Translations under genes and position numbers: made by a program | The notes under the pieces: model-generated | Told to the model about the DNA's origin: nothing | Seen by the model: the letters and a program-made list of their open reading frames with translations, nothing else | Databases searched by the model: none | Source: Membranipora membranacea | Taxonomy: Eukaryota; Bryozoa; Gymnolaemata; Cheilostomatida; Membraniporidae | Reading direction: 5' to 3' | DNA: 64,000 nt | NCBI GenBank assembly: GCA_914767715.1 | Contig: OU612067.1 | Span: forward strand, 27,440,162-27,504,161 | Part shown: positions 6,010 to 51,300 of the stretch, in pieces | Position numbering within the stretch: position 1 is the stretch's first letter | How the letters are laid out: each line of letters starts with the position of its first letter

Positions 6010-7271
6010 ATGTCATCTTCTCAGGAAACACATCACCAACAGTGCAAGAGGGCAGGTCCCGGGACATCAACAACAGATATGTCCTCGCTTGTAAGGCCAG
6101 TGGTATTAGCTACCTCATTCATGGGTAATCTTAATGTGCAATCACCGAACATCCACTCTGTGTTTGACGAAAAGTTGGCGAAGCTGTCAGGAGCTTGTGA
6201 GCAGACCCTGCGTGACCACGTTGCCACGGTCAGGGGTCTTGTGCGACGTAAATTTATAGAGGAAGGCCTGGTCCAAGCTAATGGTGCCGTTATAGACATA
6301 TGTTTCAGCTTCGACGTAACATGGCACAAGGGAGGACATACAAGTCACACATGAATTGGTGTGGCTATCGATATCCTATCAGGTTATGTTGTTGACTTTG
6401 AGGTCAACTCAAACTTTTGCCTCATTTGTGAGCGTGAGAAGAACTTGGAGGAAGATGGACCCTCAGCAGCCTCAAGCGCTTCATGACAAAGCACAAGGAA
6501 GTATGTACTATAAACCATAAAAGATTAAGTAACGCTATGGAGGTCGCTGCCGCTGTAAAGATTTGGGAAAGATCTAAAACTGGTCCCTTGAACTATGTGA
6601 TAATGCTATCAGATGAAGATAGCAAAGCCTATGCGTGATCGTCAGTATGAAGCCCTATGGTGAGAAGATGGTAAAGAAAGAATAATGCATAAATAACGTT
6701 GCGAAAAGGCTGGGGGCAGGACTGGATATTATGAAATAAAAGAGCCAGGGTTCAGGTGCACCATTAGATGGTAGAGGCATGCTGACAGCCACTATGATAA
6801 AGACATGGCAGACATACTATCAGAATACCATAAAGAACAATGCTGCTGACAACAAAGCGATGAAGCAATTGATCATGGCCACCCCCTGCCATTTGACCTC
6901 CAGTGACGACGACCCCGACCACAGGTTTTGTCCAGAGAACAGTTGGTGCTGGTTCAAAAACCCTGAACGAGCCAAAACCCATCCTGATCTCCCAAAGCAG
7001 ATGTTGGAGAAGCTCCTACCGGTCTAGGAGAGAATCTCTAATGATCAGCTGCTCGAGCGATGCTCTAGAGTTTCGACAGAAAATGGCGTCATCTGGCTTC
7101 ATTGTCCGAACAACGCAGTGGTTTGGTAAGGAATCAGTCAAGATGGCAGCTGTAATGGGAGTTATCACATTCAACAGTGGAGAAGCTCAACTGTACAAAA
7201 TTGCAGAGAAATTCGGACCGGCTGCGGGGGAAAAGACAGTGAAGCACGCCAAGTCAAAGGATGAGAAATGA
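6010..7271 (+). pseudogene. Mutator-like transposase relic (metazoan Mutator-like domain family)
   Basis: The first 114 codons are open and end with DICFSFDVTWHKGGHTSHT, matching the first catalytic block of the family (SFDGTWxKRGHTS-like). Past a stop come GVAIDILSGYVVDFEVNSNF with CLICEREKN, then in another frame MEVAAAVKIWERSK and VIMLSDEDSKAYA (second acidic block). Next come NTIKNNAADNKAMKQLIMAT and HRFCPENSWCWFKNPERAKT (cysteine/tryptophan block), then ISNDQLLERCSR. The tail VKMAAVMGVITFNSGEAQLY is again open. The order of blocks is that of a full-length transposase, but several stops and frame changes break it. A relic of a DDE-type DNA transposon; family confidence is high, activity is excluded. 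Confidence 0.8.
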
Positions 7272-15740: not shown

Positions 15741-16232
15741 TATTCTACGCCAACTGGCGTCTGGCGGTATTTTGATTTTATCAGGGCTCTGACAAGGTGG
15801 CGGGTGTTCATCTAGATCAAGGAATTAATTTTGAGTGGCCTAATGAGAAAAAGTCACATACCAGCAGTATGAAGAGGTGTTCGTCCATTTTTACTAACGT
15901 TGTTACAGCTTGTAGGGTCCTTCTGAAGCAAAAAGTTAACAATCTCTACACTTCCCTCTCTGTAAAATAAGACAAGTTGATGGCTAATGCTTAAGCAATA
16001 ACTTGGGTTATCAGTGGGAGAAGACATCATTGTTCTCTTCTCTTGAATATGTATATTGAAAACAAATACATCCAGTACACATGTATTCCAATTAGACGAC
16101 AAACAGCTCGGCTCTAAATACCTACCCAAGAGGGGTAAATATCAGCAGGAGTTTAGTTTTCGCTTGTTGAGGAGTTACCATATAGCTACCATATAAAATA
16201 TCTGGTACTTTATAATTTGGTGTATCATATGA

Positions 16233-16287
16233 GCGTTTGCTAGGCGTTTGGTAGGCGTTTGGTAGGTGTTTGCTAGACGCTTGCTAG
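16233..16287 (+). repeat. 11-bp minisatellite, five units
   Basis: Five consecutive 11-mers of the form GCGTTTGSTAG, with drift in the last two units. No coding frame is preserved through it. Confidence 0.8.
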
Positions 16288-17599
16288 GCATTTAGCTGTA
16301 TGACTGTTTGGTTTAGTACATCTGGTTTGGTAAAGCTGTTTAGCCCGATGACTAAGCATCATTTTATTTAGCTCAATATCATAACCTAGGGCCTAGGCTA
16401 TCAATTATGATTGTACTGTGAATAAAAGTTTCTTGTCAGGCTGAGAGTTTGTGGAGTGGAAAGACTCTTGTGCATGGGCTAGTGAAAAGGTTTTCCATTG
16501 TGTGTTATCTAGATATATTATTATGCTAGTGATTGATTAACCAAACACCACCACCTAATCTGAATAAACATTAACTTGCATTTTATTGACTGATGCTCAG
16601 AGACATACCTGGGCAGCGATGTGGAAGGCATTCCAGCCATCTTTGTTGACTCTGGTAAGAGAAGCACCATGCTCAACAAGCAGTTTAATAGGTTCCACTT
16701 CTGTCTAAGCACATGCTTTCATCAGTGGTGTCCTAAAACAGTGTCATTAGGGGACAACATTTAATTAAAGCAAGAGCTAACATCAATCAGCTGTTTTGTC
16801 ACACATTTCTCTTCCTCTACCTGGGCATCGCATGTCTTATTTTACTAATACGCTAGATTTCACAGCTGCCCAGCATCCGAATTGGTGATAGCCATATCCT
16901 TGATCTAATTCATCTGATGCTAAATTTTATTTTTTCGACTTTCAATCGCTGTCTCATTTGCCCTAACGTGTACTGACAGGGTATTTAAGTGGAGAAAAAA
17001 AAATTACTATTTGCTTAGATTTGTCAACAAGCCATAGGTATGTAATGTGATTACAAGAAAAAGATGATTTGATTACCAACCAGTCAGCCATCTTGAGAAA
17101 GTCAATTGAGGACCCCTTCTCAATCAGTATTCTCATCACATCCATGTACGAAGCTGATGCAGCTTCGTGTAGTGCAGTTTTCCCATCACTGTTAGTACTG
17201 TCAATACTTATATACTCAAGTAACAAGGCCGTCATCTCCGCTATGCCCATTCGGGCAGCAACATGCAAAGGGGTATCACCTACAATATGATAAGATTATT
17301 GAGGTCAATAGCTTATACCATGTATGAAACACAATAGGAGCTGTAATACCAGATACGCTTTCTTGAAGTTTAAATTTCAGCAGTCCATATATGGATCACA
17401 AGTAGTAACGACATGCTCTAATGGTCAGACGCTACAATATAGGCTACATTCTATTGGAATTACAGTTCAGCATGGCTCCATCAAACAACACTGTCAACCA
17501 AATGTAATGATTCGGAAATTGCAATTCCCATGACCTAGATTTGTTGTAAAGAGGAAAAAAATTATTTACAAGAATGCATGACAAGGTATTGACTACATT

Positions 17600-18240
17600 T
17601 TGACAACGCATTAAAGATTCATAGACAAGGAATGTGTCAGAGCATAATGGATACTGTATTTGGAATCTCCATGCTTCATTACATATACCCACCAATTTCT
17701 TATCACTCTGCTGCAATCCAAGGTTGAGAAATAGGCAACACTATCTGATGGTTGTATAAACAAAATATTAGGGGATATCCCCTAAGCTGTGACCTAGATA
17801 GAGGGAGTTCCCTACAGGTCACATGACACATTGCGTTGATAAGCGTTAAGTATTTTACTATTCTAGTATCTAATCAAGCTCTTGATCTAGACTTCTAACT
17901 TCTAAACCCTTATATGAGCTCATATAGAAGTATTTTTGGAGTGTCTCCAGCGAGCTATAAAAGCATCTGTTTCCAGAAATTACTATAATTAGCTCACATA
18001 ATGATCATCACACCAATGAACTAGTTCATTGATCATACATCATCATTGAAGTCTATAGACGTCATCAAATTTTCGGAGTTACCCCCACCTAACTCCAAAT
18101 TCTTTTTCCACACTACTTTGAATAACTTCTAGAATAAGATATTGATAGCCTTGTAAAATGGTAGGCAGATGTAATGGAGCATGGAGATTCCAAATCTGGC
18201 ATCCATTATGCCCTGAACACAGTCCTTGTCTATGAAACTT
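17600..18240. repeat. Inverted pair of a dispersed repeat flanking ankyrin intron 1
   Basis: About 90 bp at 17610-17700 on the plus strand (TTCATAGACAAGGAATGTG ... GGAATCTCCATGCTTCATT) matches 18165-18240 on the minus strand with scattered differences. Both copies lie in intron 1 of the ankyrin gene. No termini could be defined. Confidence 0.6.
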
Positions 18241-18420
18241 TAACCTTGTGAAGGGCTCATCAGCTGTCAAACTCGCCTCACCTTTTAACACAGATTCACG
18301 TGACTGACAGAGCGATGTGTCAGCTTTTATCAAGGATTCTACTAAATCCATGTTATCATCTTGAATAGCCTTGTGCAGCTTTGATATCAAAGCAGCGTAC
18401 ATTTTGTTCTTCTTAGGCAT

Positions 18421-21032: not shown

Positions 21033-21676
21033 CTATTTGAAATTGAATCGTACTCCGACACCTCCTAATCCTCGTCCATCGATACCGCCAGTCCTCTGGT
21101 ATCCTCCATACCAGTTCACTCCCCCTCCTCTCGATGTACCTCCGATTCCTACAGATCCCCCGTTCTGATGGGAAGCTCCGAGCCATGTGTTCCCTCCGAG
21201 TCTAGTACCGGCTGCTAAGTTACCGATGAAGGGGTTTGTACTCTGTGGTCTCCCTGCCCAGAGAGGGCCAAGGCTCAGCCTCCTACAATAAAAGTGCGAT
21301 GGATATCATCGGTTGAACAATTCTAAATAAGTTCAGCCAGTCAATGTCAAGTTTAAGTCAATTGTTGATGTTACAGGACTAAAACAAAGTCACAACATGA
21401 TCATCCGTCCATCCTCCATCTAAGATATGACTAGTTGAGACAATGTCACGAATGAAATCAAATTGAATATTTAAAACTATAACTCTTGTTTCCACATAAC
21501 CTTGTTTCCATACAACCTTGTTTCCATATAACCTTGTATAATTACGGCGGGGGATGGGATGGAACTCCTCCTGACGGTGAGAACTGACGCTTTACTCTGT
21601 GTAAGGTCGTACATTGTGCTGATTCTAGCACTAGGAAAACAAAGACAGCAATCAGCAAACTTCTTAGTATAATCAT
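21033..21676 (-). CDS. Secreted Gly-rich cationic peptide precursor A (attacin/diptericin-like design)
   Basis: Two exons. Exon 1 (21676-21546) starts MIILRSLLIAVFVFLVLESA, a classic signal peptide ending near AQC, then TTLHRVKR, a furin-type cleavage site. Exon 2 (21282-21033, acceptor ATTGTAG, phase 2) continues RLSLGPLWAGRPQSTNP, then the Gly-rich core RLGGNTWLGASHQNGG, GIGGTSRGGGVNWYGG, and ends GVGVRFNFK. The whole precursor is about 126 residues. After RVKR the mature peptide starts with Gln (a possible pyroglutamate), has a short Pro-rich segment, then alternating Gly/aromatic strand-like sequence. It has no Cys and only one acidic residue. Known insect attacins, gloverins and diptericins share this layout of signal, short basic-ended pro-segment, then P and G domains. 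Direct homology is not shown, so antimicrobial function is inference. A close paralogue with identical exon structure is at 27188-28006 on the other strand. Confidence 0.88.
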
Positions 21677-21784
21677 AATACCTGTCTCTATGTATTCGGG
21701 AGGAAAGGATGATATATCTATAACTGGTATGTTTTGTTCTGATCTCAGAACATCACCACTTTTCAGTATTCTGATGTTTAGTTT

Positions 21785-21816
21785 ATGTAGCTACATCTAT
21801 TTATACAAAAATTTAC
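21785..21816 (-). promoter_or_regulatory. Core promoter of peptide gene A
   Basis: Minus strand: AAATTTTTGTATAAATAGA then TGTAGCTAC. The TATA element TATAAATA is at 21805-21798, about 122 bp before the ATG. The same order of motifs (AATTTT, TATAAATA, TGTAGC) stands 125 bp before the ATG of gene B. An AP-1-like TGACTCA lies just upstream at 21827-21833. Confidence 0.7.
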
Positions 21817-22459
21817 AAGGAAAAGTGACTCACAGGGTAACAAGGAAACAACTCATTAAGAAAAAAACAACACTCATATCAACGTAGCTCAGCAACTACA
21901 AACAATGATTACATAATTTAAAACTTTCCCCTAACCTAGAAACCTTGGCTGGTTCATTAGGAAATGCATCCTGCATTCAAGGATGAGCCCCTCCCCATTC
22001 AAATCCATGCCGCAAAATTACCACAAATCACTCCAAAAACATTATAAGCTTCAATTGATTAGATAAGTACACCTCAAGGAAAGCTGTGCTAAATAAATTC
22101 ACTTGAATGTGTAGCAGGGTAATTAAGGCTTGACAGACACCCTGTAAGCAAAAAGCCTTGGAGGAGAAAAGACTTGGTCATTTCCAAACAGGTTTGATCG
22201 AGTGAAATAGAAATCGACCAAATTTCTTTAAATCAACTCAAAATTGAACTCGCAAAAAAATTCAGTCGTTCGAAAACGCTTATCAGTATCACTAGCTAAT
22301 ATTTACTACTCATAGGAAGTTTGCGCTCTTTTCTATTGCGATGATATCATAGTTTGATCCTAGAGAGTGCACACTTATCTATACCTGTCATTGGATGCGA
22401 TTATTACCACAATTCCTCTGTCTGCTAATAGTCCTGTGGCAGCCTACCAAAAATGTGGC

Positions 22460-23660
22460 TAGAAATGCAACTTCATTTACGAAATTGGATGGATAAATTC
22501 TAAGAGTGGATTCTAGGGAAGTGTTTTGAGGCGGTCGCAATGGTGATGATGTACCTTACACAATGTTGCACAATAGGCAGCAAATTGCCAAAAACGCTGC
22601 CGAAGATGGCCAAAATTGCTGTTTTTTGAGATTTCAAAGGTCTGTCCTGTGCTCACCTTATGAGTTGGGCTACTCAAACTCTGCATTCAGATTTATAGAT
22701 ACCTTGGTCAGTTTTTGGTATAATATCAGCATGATATCTCAAATATTGAGTGAATGACCACCTTATAAAACGTGATAAAGTGAAAAATGCTGCCTGCAAA
22801 AGGGAAAGTGATGATAAAATGATGATATGGTTTCAGAACGTCCAAAATCTGAAAGAGCATGCCATAATTAGTAGATCTACAAGTTTACATGGATCCGCTA
22901 TCCTATCATAAATAGCCGAGATGTGGCCAACAACAGTTGCAATAAATACCCCCTTATATCACCTGTATATAACTATCATTGAAACGACACTACTTTTTCT
23001 ATTTTGCAGACACCTCGAAAACTGACTTTGAATGTTTGGATTGATCTGATCTTATTATGGTGGTTTTGTATTGACTCCATCAATGACCAAAAAATTGGCA
23101 CCTTTCTGATGATACATGAAGGAGCTAACTTTTGCTTTACACGCTATATAACCTTATAAAGACGATTTTTATGATACTATAAAGGAAACCTAGAATACGC
23201 ACTATTTGCAAAACGACACACTCAGAGCATTAAAAACTGTTGTTATGCGATGGGAGGGTCAATACACAGTCACCATAAAAAAACCAGATCAATACTAACA
23301 TTTGAAGCCTGTTTTTTAGGCAGCAGCATAATTGAAAAGGTAGTTTCACTTTAATGATAGTTATACACAGGTGATAAAAGGGGTATTGCAACCGTCGTTG
23401 GCCGTATCTCAGCTTTTTATGATGGCAGACCCATATAAATTTGTAGATCCACTAATTATGACGTGCTCTTTCAGATTTTGGATGTCTTGAAACCATATCA
23501 TCATTTTTTGATCGCTTTCCTTTTTACCGGCAGCATTTTTGGCAATTAGCGGCCCATTGTGCAACCTAGGTACATTGTTACCATTGCGATCAGCGTGAAA
23601 AACTGCACCCGTAACAACTGACAAACTTTATCCATCCAAATGTGCAAATTGAAACTTACA
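22460..23660. mobile_element. Large imperfect inverted repeat (fold-back or TIR element)
   Basis: The left arm (about 22475-22990) and right arm (about 23345-23645) are inverted copies. GGATGGATAAA, GCAATGGT, TTTCAGAACGTCCAAAATCT and CACCTGTATATAACTATCAT on the left each have complements in order on the right. The left arm carries an extra insertion of about 190 bp. The loop of about 350 bp holds no gene. Exact ends and target duplication could not be set. Confidence 0.75.
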
Positions 23661-23890
23661 AGATAGGCAGGGGCTGCCACCGAACTATAAGAGCTTTTTT
23701 GTCTTTGTTGACCTTTAGAATACACATCACTCAGCTCACCACATCATGAGTGTCTTATAATGAAAGCTCTTTCAAACATTGCTCTGTTCTCTATCATTTC
23801 TCACCAATTTTTCTGCATCAAAATGAACTCATAACTGTGAAAAGTCATTAATGTAAAAAACCTATGTCTCTGCCCATCTAGACCTATCGT

Positions 23891-24334
23891 CAGGGGCGTA
23901 TATTCTAAAAATTTTCACTCACTGACTTTTTAGAGATGAGCATAATGATCGGGCGCAGCCCGATCCACACGCCGTAGGCGTGGCGGGGAGGGTGTGGGAG
24001 GGGCGCTTAAGCGCCCTCCCACCACGGAAATTTTTGCATATCGGTAGCAAAATAGTGCAAGCAGAGAGGTATTTCAATAGCTCACTGAGGTATTTCAATA
24101 GCTCACTGAGGTATTTCAATAGCTCACTGAGGTATTTCAATAGCTCACTGAGGTATTTCAATAGCTCACTGAGCTGTTGGGTACTTTCAGAAAACAACTC
24201 AATAGCAGTAGAAGATTACGGGAAAAACCCACAACAATCTGATATACAGTGATTATAAAGCAGACGCTCTACACACTGAGCTATTCAGTCACTCACGGAA
24301 TTCCGTGGGCCGTGACTGCTAATATACGCCACTG
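23891..24334. mobile_element. Composite non-autonomous hAT-type element with tRNA-like head, minisatellite and hairpins
   Basis: Terminal inverted repeats CAGGGGCGTATATT (left) and CAGTGGCGTATATT (right, reversed) are bounded by a perfect 8-bp target duplication CCTATCGT (23883-23890 and 24335-24342), diagnostic of hAT transposition. Inside, from left: three GC-rich hairpins (ATCGGGCGCAGCCCGAT; CACGCCGTAGGCGTG; a larger one centred on GGCGCTTAAGCGCC), five exact 21-bp repeats, then on the minus strand TAGCTCAGTGTGTAGAGC, a good tRNA box A, and finally CACGGAATTCCGTG. The element is far more GC-rich than its surroundings. No transposase is encoded. Confidence 0.88.
24066..24170 (+). repeat. 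21-bp tandem repeat, five exact copies
   Basis: The unit GAGGTATTTCAATAGCTCAC plus T is repeated five times without a mismatch. Because 21 is divisible by three, both strands show long repetitive open frames, but no gene context supports coding. It lies inside the hAT-type element. Confidence 0.95.
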
Positions 24335-24342
24335 CCTATCGT

Positions 24343-26015
24343 GTTAGCCATTCACACAGCCTGTCATGGTTTGTTAGTGTGTTTATATAGCTGAATTTGG
24401 TAAGTTTAAATTTTATAAACTGTTGCATTGCTTTGGCGGCAGGAATTATTAACAAACAGAGCCTAAAAGGGTCATTGTATTTGAGCATGCCATGCAATTT
24501 TTATTGGCTGTGGCTGCATTAGAAGAGGTCAGGCGACTACACATACAGCCATCAACAAATGTGCTGCGAAAATGTTTAACAGATCAGTGATATCATACCT
24601 CTCTGACGTCATGCAGTTCCTTATAACTTTCATTATCTAATCTGATTGCAACCTCCTAAATTCTGATTCACACCAGCCGATTATCTCTTATATGTGAAGC
24701 TTTCCTTCCCTTGTTTCACTCATGAGTTGGGAGATTGCCAAATTTCACCGGCAAGGTTTGGGATTAAATCAATGAAACTGACAGACCATTGTGTAAGAGT
24801 TGTTACACCTGGATCTGACAGGCTGGTTATATGATTCATCCCCACAGTTTCCTCCAAATAACAGATAAGTCTCAATTCTCAAGCATGTATTTCCCTGTTA
24901 ACCTTATCTTTCTACTTTAATCCAGCTGCTTTAATAGTCCTTATTTTCATTGTGTTGATTCAACAATGAAACTGATGGCCCTTTGTACCCTTGGAGAGAA
25001 AATATAATCTGTATAGCACTGTTTTTTTAAATCTCTGTTTCAGGAAAACTATCAAAAAAAGCCAGGTGGTTGGCCCTATGTTCTAAAATGAGATGGCCGT
25101 TGCTAATAGAGACGTCAGATCCCACTCATCAATTTTAAACATGTGGTTTAATAATAATGATAACCAGCATTCAGGCCCGTTCCCCCCATCCCTCCGAATA
25201 TTTCCCTAATTTTTGTTCTCAAATTGAAAACAAGTGTGTATATCTTGTTACACTGATCACTATGGTGTCATGTTTATCCTGAAACTGATGAATTTAATGA
25301 GAAATATTTGGTTTTAGCCATGTTTATTTTAATGCGATAGATTATTAAAACCTAGCATGTCGCCTTTACTGCCCAAGGATTTGGAATAAAAGAGACTAAA
25401 TTTTAAACCCTTTTCATCACAATGATCCTTTTTTATATGAGCTTATTTACAAATAGACTAAACTAACTATCAATTTTAACCAGTTACCCATTTTGAACCT
25501 GGTGGACAGGTGCTGCTATTCCTGTTGTAAGGCTGTTAACAAAAATAAGAAAATGGTTACCTGCTTTCACAGTTGGGAAGATTGGGACTTACCTACAACT
25601 AGCTTTTACCACAGCAATAGTCATTGCGATGAATGAATGTAAAGTAAGGTGTAAGAGGCAGGGGCGTAGGAAGTACCCCCAACCCCCAGACCTATCTGGG
25701 GTTAAATTTATAACCCAAGCCAAATCAAAATAGAATCATCATATTAAGATGCACTACCCATGGTTGGTCACATCACATGCTGTGCAGTACATGTCACTAC
25801 ACATTACTAACTGGTACTTGACTGCTTCGAGGGCACAGGCTTCCTGATCATACTGATTGTGGGTCTCTGTAAGGTTGGGAAGAAAAGGAGACATCTCTTA
25901 TTTTTTTCACAAAGTTGGAATTCAACCTCAGATCAGGGAGCTTATCCCAGATCTTTTCTAACCAGGATTTTTACTTGCCAACTCAAGATTCAAAGAATTT
26001 TTTTGCGCTTCGCTC
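24343..26015. other. Intergenic, nothing identified
   Basis: AT-rich sequence with no coding frame above background and no recognisable repeat boundary. Confidence 0.45.
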
Positions 26016-26019
26016 ATAA

Positions 26020-26290
26020 TAATATTAATAATAATGAGTTTATTTATATACCGCTTAATGTAACTCACAATGGGTACTTCTAAGCGGTTGTGCACTACAT
26101 CATTACCGCCCAGTCACTGGGTCCAAAAACTCCACAGCCAACCCTGGCTAATGGGGACCTGCATCGCATAAAGCGCTGATACCCATTGGAACACCCTACA
26201 AAACTCGGCTTCTCAGGTAACGCACGTGGCCATGCACGGGAATCGAACCCCACTTGGCTAACCTGATAACCTCTGGGGTTCAATAATAAA
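26020..26290 (-). mobile_element. tRNA-derived SINE
   Basis: On the minus strand a tRNA-like head contains GGGGTTCGATTCCCG, a canonical box B, preceded by CAGGTTAGCCAAGTGG as a weak box A region. A body of about 190 bp follows, then GCGGTATATAAATAAACTC and an ATT-rich tail (ATTATTATTAATATTATTA). This head-body-tail order is that of a Pol III-transcribed SINE. Its tail resembles that of the SINE at 58 kb. Confidence 0.7.
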
Positions 26291-27043
26291 CTCAAAATGC
26301 CCGGGTAAGAGTGTCGATGAGTCACGCCCATCCCAAACTTTAATTTATTGACAAGGAATCTGCTATAAATTTGAAAAAGAACCAGGTTCAAAACCTTCTG
26401 CATAATTGTGGTCCAGGACTACGGTAGATTTTTTTCTTTATTGTTCTATTTCTTGCCCATTTTTGCACAATCTAAATGAAATGAACAATGGAATAATTGT
26501 GATCATGCTGCAGGATTAACTTTGACCAATAGATTTTCTGTTTGGTAACTGAATTGAACGCTGATGGAACCATATCAAGCTTTGATGCCAATACCTTCAG
26601 TTACAATTAGGACATCCATTCAGATTAATAAAAATTCTAGACGTCAACTGCACTCCTTGGTACGATAGATAACACTTTGCCTCCAAATCAATCCGGTATA
26701 TGAGGGAAATATTGTTTCTCTTTCTATTATGGTATGATTTTATTTTTCTGTTGCCTGGATTGAATCTCATCTGGGTATGTGACAATAGAATGAATCAGCA
26801 ATCAAGCTGCAGGGATATCAGGATAATCCTCCAAGGCACTCAAGGTATTTCCTTGTCGGCCAGTTAAAGATTCATCAAATCTCAATAGTTTGGGGGATGC
26901 TTAATATTATGCAACGCATTGTTCAGTTACCGATTTGCATAATTCCATAGTTTTGAAATCATCATAGCGGTTGTATTTCTCCAAACAGACTGGCACTATG
27001 AGGAAAAGTAATCAATCATGTAACTTTTCAGGCTCCTTTTCCT

Positions 27044-27076
27044 CCTAATTTTGCATATAAATACCTGTAGCATCTT
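27044..27076 (+). promoter_or_regulatory. Core promoter of peptide gene B
   Basis: CCTAATTTTGCATATAAATA then CCTGTAGCATC. The TATA element TATAAATA is at 27056-27063, 125 bp before the ATG. It matches the promoter of gene A in motif order and spacing. Confidence 0.7.
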
Positions 27077-27187
27077 AATTTGTAGCCATCACAACTGAAG
27101 ATCCCTGAGATTAGAACACAACACAGAGGAGATTGATACACATGTAACTCATTCCCTACTGAGGACACACACACACAGACAGAAATC

Positions 27188-28006
27188 ATGATTATCCTGA
27201 GAAGTTTGTTTATTGCTGCCTTTGTTTTACTGGTGCTCCACTCAGCACAATGTGAGACCTTGCACAGGGTCAAGCGTCAGTTCTTGCCGACAGGAGTTCC
27301 ATCACCGCCTCCACCGTAAGTAACAAGGTTGTACTGACCTACCACCAAACACTCATAGTTTTTACACATTCAATTGAGCCTCAATCAAATCGAGTCAATG
27401 TTGATTTCACTAATTTCATATAGTCTTGCCTTCACAGTTTACGCACATTCAATTCTAAGTCATTGCAACTAGGATCTCTTTTTGTGAACTGCACATCTAT
27501 TAGTGATGGCAAAGTCTTGGTCCCGGTCTCGTGAGACTTGTCCCCTCAAACACTGTCTCCTCTCGTCGAGACTCTCTTGTTGGAGTGATTATTTCAGTTG
27601 ACAAGAGATTATATCTATAGATGCTTAAGTTGCAGCTATAGTTGATGAGTAAAAATGGTTTTGACCAGCTTGTGTAATTTGACGCGTTTCAGTAACTGCA
27701 CAAAATTGATAAGCCTTTGTGAATATTTTACCAATGCATTCAGTTTTATTTAATTACAGGAGGTTGAATCACGGTCCTCTCTGGGTAGGACAACCACCGA
27801 GTACAAACCCGGTTCTCGGAGGATTCGGGGCTGGAGCTAGGCTAGGAGGTAATACATGGATAGGAGCTTCACATCGTAACGGAGGGACTATCGGAGTGGG
27901 TGGTACCTCCAGAGGGGGAGGATTCAGCTGGTATGGTGGATTCTCTCCTAGAGGTGGAAGTGGTGGAGGCGGGTCTGCAGGAATAGGATTCAAAGCTAAA
28001 TTCTGA
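27188..28006 (+). CDS. Secreted Gly-rich cationic peptide precursor B (attacin/diptericin-like design)
   Basis: Exon 1 (27188-27315) encodes the signal peptide MIILRSLFIAAFVLLVLHSA followed by QCETLHRVKR. The donor is CCACC/GTAAGT in phase 2. Exon 2 (27760-28006, acceptor TAATTACAG) encodes RLNHGPLWVGQPPSTNP, the Gly core RLGGNTWIGASHRNGG, VGGTSRGGGFSWYGGF, and ends GSAGIGFKAKF. The precursor is about 125 residues. The mature part after RVKR is about 90, opens with Gln and a short run of prolines, has no Cys, and I count no Asp or Glu, so it is clearly basic. It is divergent to paralogue A, 5.5 kb away. The strongest conservation is in the signal, RVKR and GGNTW...GGTSRGGG...WYGG blocks. The split between pro-segment and G domain falls at the intron in both. 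A secreted defence peptide is the best inference; a structural Gly-rich peptide is the alternative. Confidence 0.88.
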
Positions 28007-30257: not shown

Positions 30258-30335
30258 GTGAATAGTGATTGTTTTCCAATTTTAGGTCTGCGTTTATAGA
30301 CGCAGACCTAAAATTGGAAAACAATCACTATTCAC
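30258..30335. repeat. 78-bp near-perfect palindrome just upstream of a start codon
   Basis: Each arm is about 36 bp (GTGAATAGTGATTGTTTTCC on the left; its complement closes the right arm), with one mismatched pair beside a 4-bp AT centre. The right arm ends 32 bp before the ATG of the six-cysteine gene, so it would sit in its promoter or 5' UTR. It can form a cruciform in DNA or a very stable hairpin in RNA. Confidence 0.95.
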
Positions 30336-46850: not shown

Positions 46851-47187
46851 ATGCCATCTAGATCAGACATGAGTAATTTTTTTGAAAAATTGGAGAGAGT
46901 AAATGCAAAAACTGACATGGTGCAGTGCAGAATCTGCAAGCTTAAAAAGCCTCAAAAAGATGGCAACACAACTAACATGAGGGCCCACATGGCTAAATAT
47001 CACTCTAAAGAAAATGCACAGTATAAAATGTCATCAGCAAACAGTTACAGTGATGAGACATTAGATGATAGTGGTGGGGATGAGGATCAGGGGTCAAGGG
47101 GAGCAGGAAGCAGCAGCAAGTGCCAGGACAGGTGTTTGCCAGTCTACAATGTCCAAGTCATCCTATTTCAAACAGAGTCAGACCCAG
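46851..47187 (+). CDS. BED zinc-finger exon of a hAT transposase (ZBED-like)
   Basis: MPSRSDMSNFFEKLERVNAK is followed by MVQCRICKLKKPQKDGNTTN and MRAHMAKYH: C-x2-C, then the H-x4-H pattern typical of BED fingers, at about residues 24-51. A Ser/Asp-rich linker follows. The exon ends in phase 1 at GACCCAG/GTAAGT. BED fingers bind transposon ends or promoters. The catalytic core is not found nearby, but a matching C-terminal dimerisation segment occurs at 53.3 kb, so this may be the first exon of one interrupted copy. Confidence 0.8.
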
Positions 47188-47571
47188 GTAAGTCCGTACT
47201 GTATCCTTGCTTGCTATTATCATACTTGTGAATTATTGGTATGATATGATGATGATGTGTTTTACTGGTGAGAAGCGCAGTGATACTCTACTGCCAACTT
47301 CCCGATGCCAACTACGATGATCAGTAAATTTAATTGGTTTTAAACTTAATTTAAGCATAATATGTTGTCTGTCCTGTCAGCAGACAGATGTTTGTCTGCG
47401 CTTTACCACCAGAATTAAAGCCTTTCTTTTTGCGTGCTTTCTCATCTGTGGTGACCCGATGACTTGTGTATGAAACTGTGAATGTTGCTGGTTTAAATAA
47501 TATTGGCTTTCCTACCAATAGACAAAAATAATTCACCTGTCAGCATTAGTTTATGCCATATTCGTTTCTAG

Positions 47572-50232: not shown

Positions 50233-50459
50233 CAAGTCTAAAATAAAAAATATCATGTTGTAAATCTTGGTCTAAGATCTCAATAATGTTCATAGAATTA
50301 GTTATCAGAAACCTTTTTTTGATGTTGTGATGATGTTGGTTTTGAATTACTTTGGCTTACTAACTTTGGCTTACAGTTGTAGTAGTGTCTACAGGACTTC
50401 ATTTATTTAATTTCATGACCATTGTATGGTTATTATAATACCAGTGTTTTTATGTTTGT

Positions 50460-51300
50460 TTATAGGGTTCAATCATATTAAATACGCTGATAACACCACC
50501 TTCTATACGTCAGTCACCAACTATAACAATACATCAGCAGTGTCACCAGCAGTCATATCCACTCAAAGATGGGCAGCAGATAATAGCATGCAGCTGAACC
50601 CAGAAAAGACCGAGGTGATGAACTCTAGTTTGAGCCATAAGCATCATTATAAACAAGATGTTGTGGTTGATGATTTATCTTTTTCTCCAAATTCATTCAC
50701 AAAATTTTTAGGGGTTTTTATTGATAATAAGTTGTCTTTTAACAAACATGTAGACTCTTTAGTATCAGCTTGTAGCTCAAGATTATTTTTAATGAGGAAA
50801 CTAAAGACAATTGGACTAAACAGTGATGGCTTAAAAGCTTTTTATTTGAGCAACATACACTCAAAGCTTAGCTATGCTGCTCCGGCCTGGTATTCCTTGC
50901 TAGGCGAACATAACCGCGACAGACTTGAGAAAATACAAAGAGCAGCTCTGAAGATAATTTTTCCAGATTTAGAATACGATCATAGCTTATCAGTCTTAGG
51001 CATCCCAAAACTCTGTGATTTTCTTTTTGATATCTCTTATTCACATTTTCTGCGTATAGTGAAGAATTCCAGAACATCCTCTCGAGCTATACAAATTTTT
51101 CGGCCAAAACTCTGCAGGACTGAAAGGCGAAGAAAAAGCTTTTTTAATTTTTTCATGACCTATCATGACAACGGTCTAGTATATAAATAATTTTTAGTGT
51201 GTTGTTTTTACTATGCCATACCATCGCTCGCATTCTGTACCATCTGTCATGATGATTGAATGAATACAAATCAAATAAAATCAAAATATTAGTAAAATAG
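50460..51300 (+). mobile_element. 5'-truncated non-LTR retroposon (CR1/L2-like), reverse transcriptase C-terminal part
   Basis: The frame starts within the catalytic palm, HIKYADNTTFYTSVTN: the YADD box has become YADN, which would abolish polymerisation. It continues with RWAADNSMQLNPEKTEVM, the FLGVFIDNKLSFNKHVDSL block and the thumb region SKLSYAAPAWYSLLGEHNRD with RLEKIQRAALKIIFP, ending GLVYK at 51190. The 3' end carries TGAATGAATACAAATC and AATAAAATCAAAA, a short repeated tail typical of CR1/L2-type elements. Loss of the 5' end is usual for such insertions. The open frame of over 240 codons suggests a fairly young copy. Confidence 0.85.

What the first reader, a model, noticed from the sequence alone, without database searches (positions are those of the whole stretch)
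21033..28006. Divergent pair of secreted Gly-rich, RVKR-processed cationic peptides
Both genes are complete (two exons, same phase-2 intron, signal peptide, TLHRVKR cleavage site, Pro segment, Gly/aromatic strand-like core, no Cys). They share the blocks PLWxGxPxSTNP, RLGGNTWxGASHxNGG and GGTSRGGG. The layout equals that of attacin/diptericin-type antimicrobial precursors, yet the surrounding genome does not look like an insect. This may be an undescribed family of innate defence peptides. Sequence layout is direct; antimicrobial role is inference.
Basis: partly seen in the sequence, partly recalled or inferred. Interest (0 to 1): 0.88.

Follow-up and report, generated by a model that had tools for sequence, protein, structure and literature searches.

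The report
Paired orphan glycine-rich secreted peptides
Two sister genes in an unidentified genome, probably an animal's, encode small, positively charged, glycine-rich secreted peptides laid out like arthropod antibacterial peptides but not detectably related to those tested, so they may be an undescribed family of defence peptides, although no activity has been shown.

Summary
Two complete, head-to-head, two-exon genes lie at 21033-21676 (-) and 27188-28006 (+). They encode 126- and 124-aa precursors: a signal-like N-terminus, an 8-aa propeptide ending in RVKR, then a Cys-free mature chain (96/94 aa, pI about 12, 27-30% Gly). They share 84 of 124 aligned residues, the same phase-2 intron and a matching TATA promoter; dS is 0.96 and dN/dS 0.23, so both are constrained. 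No Pfam family matches. A protein database that holds many insect proteins gave one hit, a fragment on an unnamed ENA contig. AlphaFold2, on two sequences only, gives the same five strands for both at low to moderate confidence. Layout and size match diptericin-type precursors, reported also from springtails, myriapods and chelicerates. Membership of the dipteran attacin profile is not supported; non-insect diptericins could not be tested. Best reading: an orphan, furin-processed, glycine-rich cationic peptide family, probably antimicrobial by analogy. There is no expression or activity evidence, and no NF-kB-type site in 1 kb upstream of either gene. The host was not identified.

The parts
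21546..21676 (-). Gene A exon 1: signal-like N-terminus, propeptide TTLHRVKR, start of Pro-rich arm
   Evidence: ATG at 21676, GTAATT donor
21283..21545 (-). Gene A intron, phase 2, 263 nt
21033..21282 (-). Gene A exon 2: end of Pro-rich arm and Gly-rich core, with stop
21798..21805 (-). TATAAATA of gene A, starting 129 nt upstream of the ATG
27056..27063 (+). TATAAATA of gene B, starting 132 nt upstream of the ATG
27188..27315 (+). Gene B exon 1: signal-like N-terminus, propeptide ETLHRVKR, start of Pro-rich arm
27316..27759 (+). Gene B intron, phase 2, 444 nt (GTAAGT..ACAG)
27760..28006 (+). Gene B exon 2: end of Pro-rich arm and Gly-rich core, with stop

Best explanation
A and B are paralogous genes for secreted host-defence (antimicrobial) peptides of an undescribed family. 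Proposed working: the signal peptide is removed; a furin-type convertase cuts after RVKR and frees a mature chain starting with Gln, which probably cyclises to pyroglutamate; the free chain has a short Pro-rich arm and a Gly-rich core of about five strands, with net charge near +7; it binds anionic bacterial surfaces, above all the Gram-negative outer membrane, and disturbs it, as reported for insect Gly-rich peptides such as attacin. Shown here: gene structure, cleavage motif, composition and charge, purifying selection after an old duplication, a shared TATA promoter, and no match to the known families that were tested. Predicted only: the beta meander. Inferred: secretion, processing, pyroglutamate, induction and antibacterial action.
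For: Signal-like N-terminus, RVKR|Q, mature 96/94 aa, pI 11.9/12.0, charge about +6.9, Gly 27/30%, no Cys. omega 0.23, 0.13-0.34. Shared TATAAATA at -129 and -132, suited to sharply regulated genes (general knowledge). Same five strands predicted for both cores (best-model pLDDT 59.9 and 67.7). Strand alternation of hydrophobicity above shuffles on the Kyte-Doolittle scale (p 0.036 for A, 0.001 for B). Layout as in diptericin, with furin RVRR sites in the attacin family (PMC6857651, passages). Springtail diptericins have 108-125 aa, mature 89-102, 21-25% Gly and no Cys in the mature chain (PMC10051947, passages), close to the values here. Most insect Gly-rich AMPs act on Gram-negative bacteria (PMC4874388, passages).
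Against: No expression, challenge or activity data. No kB-type site in 1 kb upstream of either gene by three patterns (0.05-0.25 expected per kb, so absence is weak evidence). Alternation is not significant on the Wimley-White octanol scale (p 0.38 for A, 0.09 for B), and the strands came from models of these same sequences. The models rest on two sequences, and the other four models of each run were less confident. Cationic Gly-rich secreted proteins can also be structural.
Confidence: 0.5

Rival explanations
1. They are secreted structural or matrix proteins (egg coat, cuticle, adhesive or shell matrix) whose Gly/aromatic strands assemble into sheets.
For: 27-30% Gly with Trp/Tyr/Phe; predicted antiparallel beta meander.
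Against: Only 94-96 aa mature, no internal tandem repeat by eye, and no Pfam family hit. An RVKR propeptide and high charge are more usual in effectors (general knowledge). Conservation is residue by residue in unique blocks, not of composition alone.
Confidence: 0.18
2. They are very diverged true members of the attacin/diptericin superfamily, perhaps of the kind reported from non-insect arthropods.
For: Same layout (RV[KR]R|Q, Pro arm, Gly domain), and size, Gly content and lack of Cys close to springtail diptericins; diptericins are also placed in Myriapoda and Chelicerata (PMC10051947, passages). By eye, a weak NP..A..RL pattern as in attacin. hhalign of the full-length pair profile against attacins printed E and P 0.004, over the RVKR/Pro region.
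Against: Pairwise scores with one attacin and one diptericin were reached by 28-97% of shuffles, and several reversed sequences scored higher. hhalign probability 8.5% (full length) and 0.2% (core). An HMM from 19 dipteran attacins scores -1.8 and -0.8 bits, with 152 and 38 of 500 shuffles as good, whereas recalled diptericin scores 16.2 with 0 of 500. Best blastp of the 63 retrieved attacin-family proteins against A and B is E 0.019, uncorrected.
Confidence: 0.15
3. They are secreted signalling peptides, or toxin or mucus components, processed at RVKR.
For: A single furin-type site and a short propeptide also occur in such precursors (general knowledge).
Against: One 94-96 aa product, no dibasic pair in the mature chain, no Cys there, and no Gly-basic tail as an amidation signal; neuropeptides and most animal toxins differ in these respects (general knowledge).
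Confidence: 0.1

Closest known systems
Diptericin / attacin superfamily of arthropods (PF03768, PF03769)
   Same: Secreted precursor, RVRR/RVKR-type site, Pro-rich segment with a Gly-rich domain, no Cys in the mature chain, similar size (83-residue mature Drosophila Dpt; 89-102 in springtails).
   Different: No homology detectable by pairwise shuffles, profile-profile comparison or HMM against dipteran attacins; no Pfam match. Non-insect diptericins were not compared.
Gloverin, coleoptericin, hymenoptaecin (insect Gly-rich AMPs)
   Same: Gly-rich secreted antibacterial peptides (class per PMC4874388, passages; further detail recalled).
   Different: No Pfam family hit at E<=10; whether Pfam has a model for each of the three was not checked.
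Crustacean Gly-rich AMPs (hyastatin, GRPSp, Spgly-AMP, type II crustins)
   Same: Gly-rich secreted antimicrobial peptides of non-insects (passages in PMC11767717 and PMC12466427).
   Different: Hyastatin, GRPSp and type II crustins carry Cys; the present mature chains have none. Their sequences were not compared.

Membership tests
Attacin/diptericin (PF03768, PF03769) | Match to Attacin_N or Attacin_C profile | tested here: not met
   Pfam: none at E<=10. HMM from 19 of 63 retrieved attacin proteins, all 19 dipteran: A -1.8, B -0.8 bits; positive control diptericin 16.2 bits. hhalign probability 8.5% (printed E 0.004) and 0.2%.
Attacin/diptericin (PF03768, PF03769) | Similarity to diptericins, non-insect ones included | tested here: inconclusive
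   One recalled Drosophila diptericin only: 37-68% of shuffles score as high. Springtail, myriapod and chelicerate members (PMC10051947) were not fetched.
Attacin/diptericin (PF03768, PF03769) | Signal peptide, furin-type RxxR site, Pro-rich and Gly-rich segments | tested here: met
   family layout from passages of PMC6857651. Signal peptide by eye; order of RxxR and Pro segment varies within the family.
Attacin/diptericin (PF03768, PF03769) | Fold of the family | not testable with these tools
   PMC10051947 (passage) states that no diptericin structure exists in the PDB; the models here are low to moderate confidence.
Gly-rich antimicrobial peptides as a functional class | Gly-rich, cationic, small secreted peptide | tested here: met
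   Gly 27/30%, charge about +6.9, 94-96 aa mature; secretion inferred.
Gly-rich antimicrobial peptides as a functional class | Antibacterial activity | not testable with these tools
   No assay here; no published data found in the searches listed under Tried and rejected.
Gly-rich antimicrobial peptides as a functional class | Immune-type promoter with kB sites (common in insect AMP genes, not strictly defining) | tested here: inconclusive
   0 kB-type sites in 1 kb upstream of either gene by three patterns, 0.05-0.25 expected; consensus scans are crude.
Known structural protein families (cuticle, shell, silk) | Match to a curated family | tested here: not met
   No Pfam family at E<=10; low-complexity families are poorly covered by profiles.

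The most novel reading that the evidence does not exclude
Probability: 0.1. Interest if true: 0.75.

Novelty: new variant of a known kind. Interest (0 to 1): 0.46.

Why it matters
If antimicrobial, this would be a Gly-rich, Cys-free, furin-processed defence peptide family with no described relatives found here. It would either show that the diptericin layout arose more than once, or, if a deep alignment links it to non-insect diptericins, extend that family. The paralogue pair gives an internal control: the block-rich core is conserved, while the last 21 aligned residues keep only 7 identities.

Tried and rejected
Attacin homology suggested by eye was tested by pairwise shuffles, profile-profile comparison and an HMM with a positive control, and is not supported. 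Against this, hhalign printed E 0.004 for the full-length comparison, over 38 columns of the RVKR/Pro region at 8% identity. Local blastp of 64 fetched proteins (P0001 and the 63 attacin-family hits) against A and B: apart from P0001, the best line is E 0.019 (P0034 vs B), uncorrected.

PDB sequence search with B: one hit at E 4.3. PHROGs: none at E<=0.1 for the B core or P0001. Prokaryote genome contigs and viral contigs: 32 and 11 pattern matches, none encoding a relative. Plasmids (A precursor) and E. coli genomes (gene A DNA): no match. Rfam at gathering thresholds and ARAGORN: nothing in the window.

Promoter motifs: ten patterns were scanned in 1 kb upstream of each gene. Some exceeded the window rate (ETS-type AGGAAR 6 and 3 against 1.67; one IRF-type site in each against 0.09; one AP-1 site in each; C/EBP-type 5 in A, 1 in B against 1.03); uncorrected for the number of patterns and not interpreted. 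STAT and NFAT patterns: none.

Literature searches: 0 papers; 15 of 89 listed; 15 of 1,064 listed; 0; 10 of 148 listed; 8 of 8; 3 of 3; four sequence blocks searched inside words, 0. No listed title or abstract start describes this family; most matching papers were not listed. Passages were seen of PMC4874388, PMC6857651, PMC11767717, PMC12466427, PMC10051947 and PMC7203481; the last mentions attacins only in passing.
Full report
What is there. The window is 38.3% G+C, with 2-kb stretches of 34-44%. Two genes lie head to head, 5.5 kb apart. Gene A on the minus strand has exon 1 at 21676-21546 and exon 2 at 21282-21033; gene B on the plus strand has exon 1 at 27188-27315 and exon 2 at 27760-28006. 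Both introns are GT-AG, phase 2, 263 and 444 nt. Both acceptors read AG-GAG, a tandem acceptor that could add or drop the Arg at the junction; for B the shorter product was translated and stays in frame. The precursors are 126 and 124 aa: a hydrophobic signal-like stretch ending near SAQC (by eye), an 8-residue propeptide [TE]TLHRVKR, then a mature chain beginning QF. The mature chains have 96 and 94 residues, pI 11.9 and 12.0, charge about +6.9, Gly 27 and 30%, no Cys and no dibasic pair.

Is it real? tblastn finds each gene from the other at E 1.3e-13 to 5.5e-18, and no third copy in the window. 84 of 124 aligned codons encode the same residue. NG86 gives dS 0.96, dN 0.22, omega 0.23, bootstrap range 0.13-0.34. 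Leader and mature part are constrained alike (0.22 each); the last 21 codons are the loosest (7 identical residues, omega 0.31 with dS 1.99). The 5' flanks align around CTTTTCCT..TATAAATA with score 38 against a best of 30 in 100 single-base shuffles; introns and 3' flanks do not exceed shuffles. TATAAA begins 129 and 132 nt before the ATG. Protein constraint with about one synonymous change per site is strong evidence for two working genes, although there is no transcript evidence.

What family? Pfam gives nothing at E<=10 for either precursor. The 5.8-billion-protein search gave nothing for B at E<=0.1 (118 candidates) and one hit for the A+B profile at E<=10 (1853 candidates): P0001, E 5.6e-14, a 144-aa frame on an unnamed 1474-nt ENA contig. 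34 residues of P0001 match A at 88% and B at 65%; its remainder matches nothing credible in the window, so it looks like a fragment or altered copy from another sample. The same database returned 63 proteins for a recalled attacin, 53 of them with names, all Diptera. It therefore holds insect proteins; how well it covers other animals is not known, the search needs shared five-residue words, and small two-exon genes are often missed in annotation.

Attacin test. Local alignment scores of A and B with attacin-A and diptericin were reached by 28-97% of shuffles, and reversed sequences scored higher in three of four pairs. hhalign of the two-sequence profile against 19 dipteran attacins (19 of the 63 hits) gave probability 8.5% for the full length, with printed E 0.004 over the RVKR/Pro region, and 0.2% for the core. 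An HMM from the 19 scored A at -1.8 and B at -0.8 bits, matched or beaten by 152 and 38 of 500 shuffles; diptericin as positive control scored 16.2 bits with 0 of 500. PMC6857651 (passages) describes diptericin as a Pro-rich domain tailed by a Gly-rich attacin-family domain, with furin RVRR sites in relatives. PMC4874388 (passages) infers an attacin C-domain at the base of Neoptera and warns that Gly-rich AMP homology is often unconvincing by HMM. PMC10051947 (passages) reports diptericins from springtails, with 108-125 aa, mature 89-102, 21-25% Gly and no Cys in the mature chain, and trees with myriapod and chelicerate diptericins. These sizes are close to A and B, so descent from a non-insect diptericin remains open; those sequences could not be fetched here.

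Function. The combination of likely secretion, RVKR followed by Gln, strong positive charge, Gly/aromatic strands, absence of Cys, and duplication under constraint is best explained by an antimicrobial effector acting on bacterial envelopes; I give this, as an undescribed family, 0.5. The missing kB sites count weakly against NF-kB induction. A structural role (0.18), diverged attacin/diptericin descent (0.15, also antimicrobial) and signalling, toxin or mucus roles (0.10) remain.

Host. An ankyrin-repeat gene at about 15.85-18.42 kb (-) carries blocks that I recall as typical of ANKRD16 (TALHEAA, TPLMKACA, KDGWNAFHIAA). Pfam and PDB searches confirm ankyrin repeats but not the orthology. Of the 57 open frames of 80 aa or more, 17 were scanned against Pfam as single frames: one hit to a reverse transcriptase and one to a BED finger, plus one sub-threshold DUF4951 match.

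Noticed in passing
15854-18420 (-): Multi-exon ankyrin-repeat gene with blocks recalled as ANKRD16-like; the only clear conserved host gene seen near the pair.
   Followed up: partly
22565-23565: Fold-back element between the two genes: three inverted repeats one inside the other (38-126 nt arms, 79-89% complementary), MITE-like.
   Followed up: no
24066-24173: Perfect 21-bp tandem repeat, 5.1 copies, beside a G+C-rich palindrome at 23992-24025.
   Followed up: no
30258-30335: 39-bp inverted repeat with no spacer, 97% complementary.
   Followed up: no
50426-51190 (+): Reverse transcriptase C-terminal fragment (RVT_1, E 0.00087, below the curated cut-off), non-LTR-like by eye.
   Followed up: partly
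46851-47231 (+): BED zinc finger (PF02892, E 1.3e-5), probably of a transposon.
   Followed up: partly
6779-7027 (+): Weak DUF4951 match (E 0.0038, 17.8 bits, below the cut-off of 27.3).
   Followed up: no
27758-27762 (+) and 21280-21284 (-): Both genes keep an AG-GAG tandem acceptor, which could give isoforms with or without one Arg.
   Followed up: partly
P0001 (ENA contig, 1474 nt): Fragment like part of gene A exon 2 within an otherwise unrelated frame; residues conserved in A and B are changed in it (STNP to STIP, RLGGN to RLGVN, SRGGG to SRGWE); possibly a pseudogene or sequencing/assembly artefact.
   Followed up: partly
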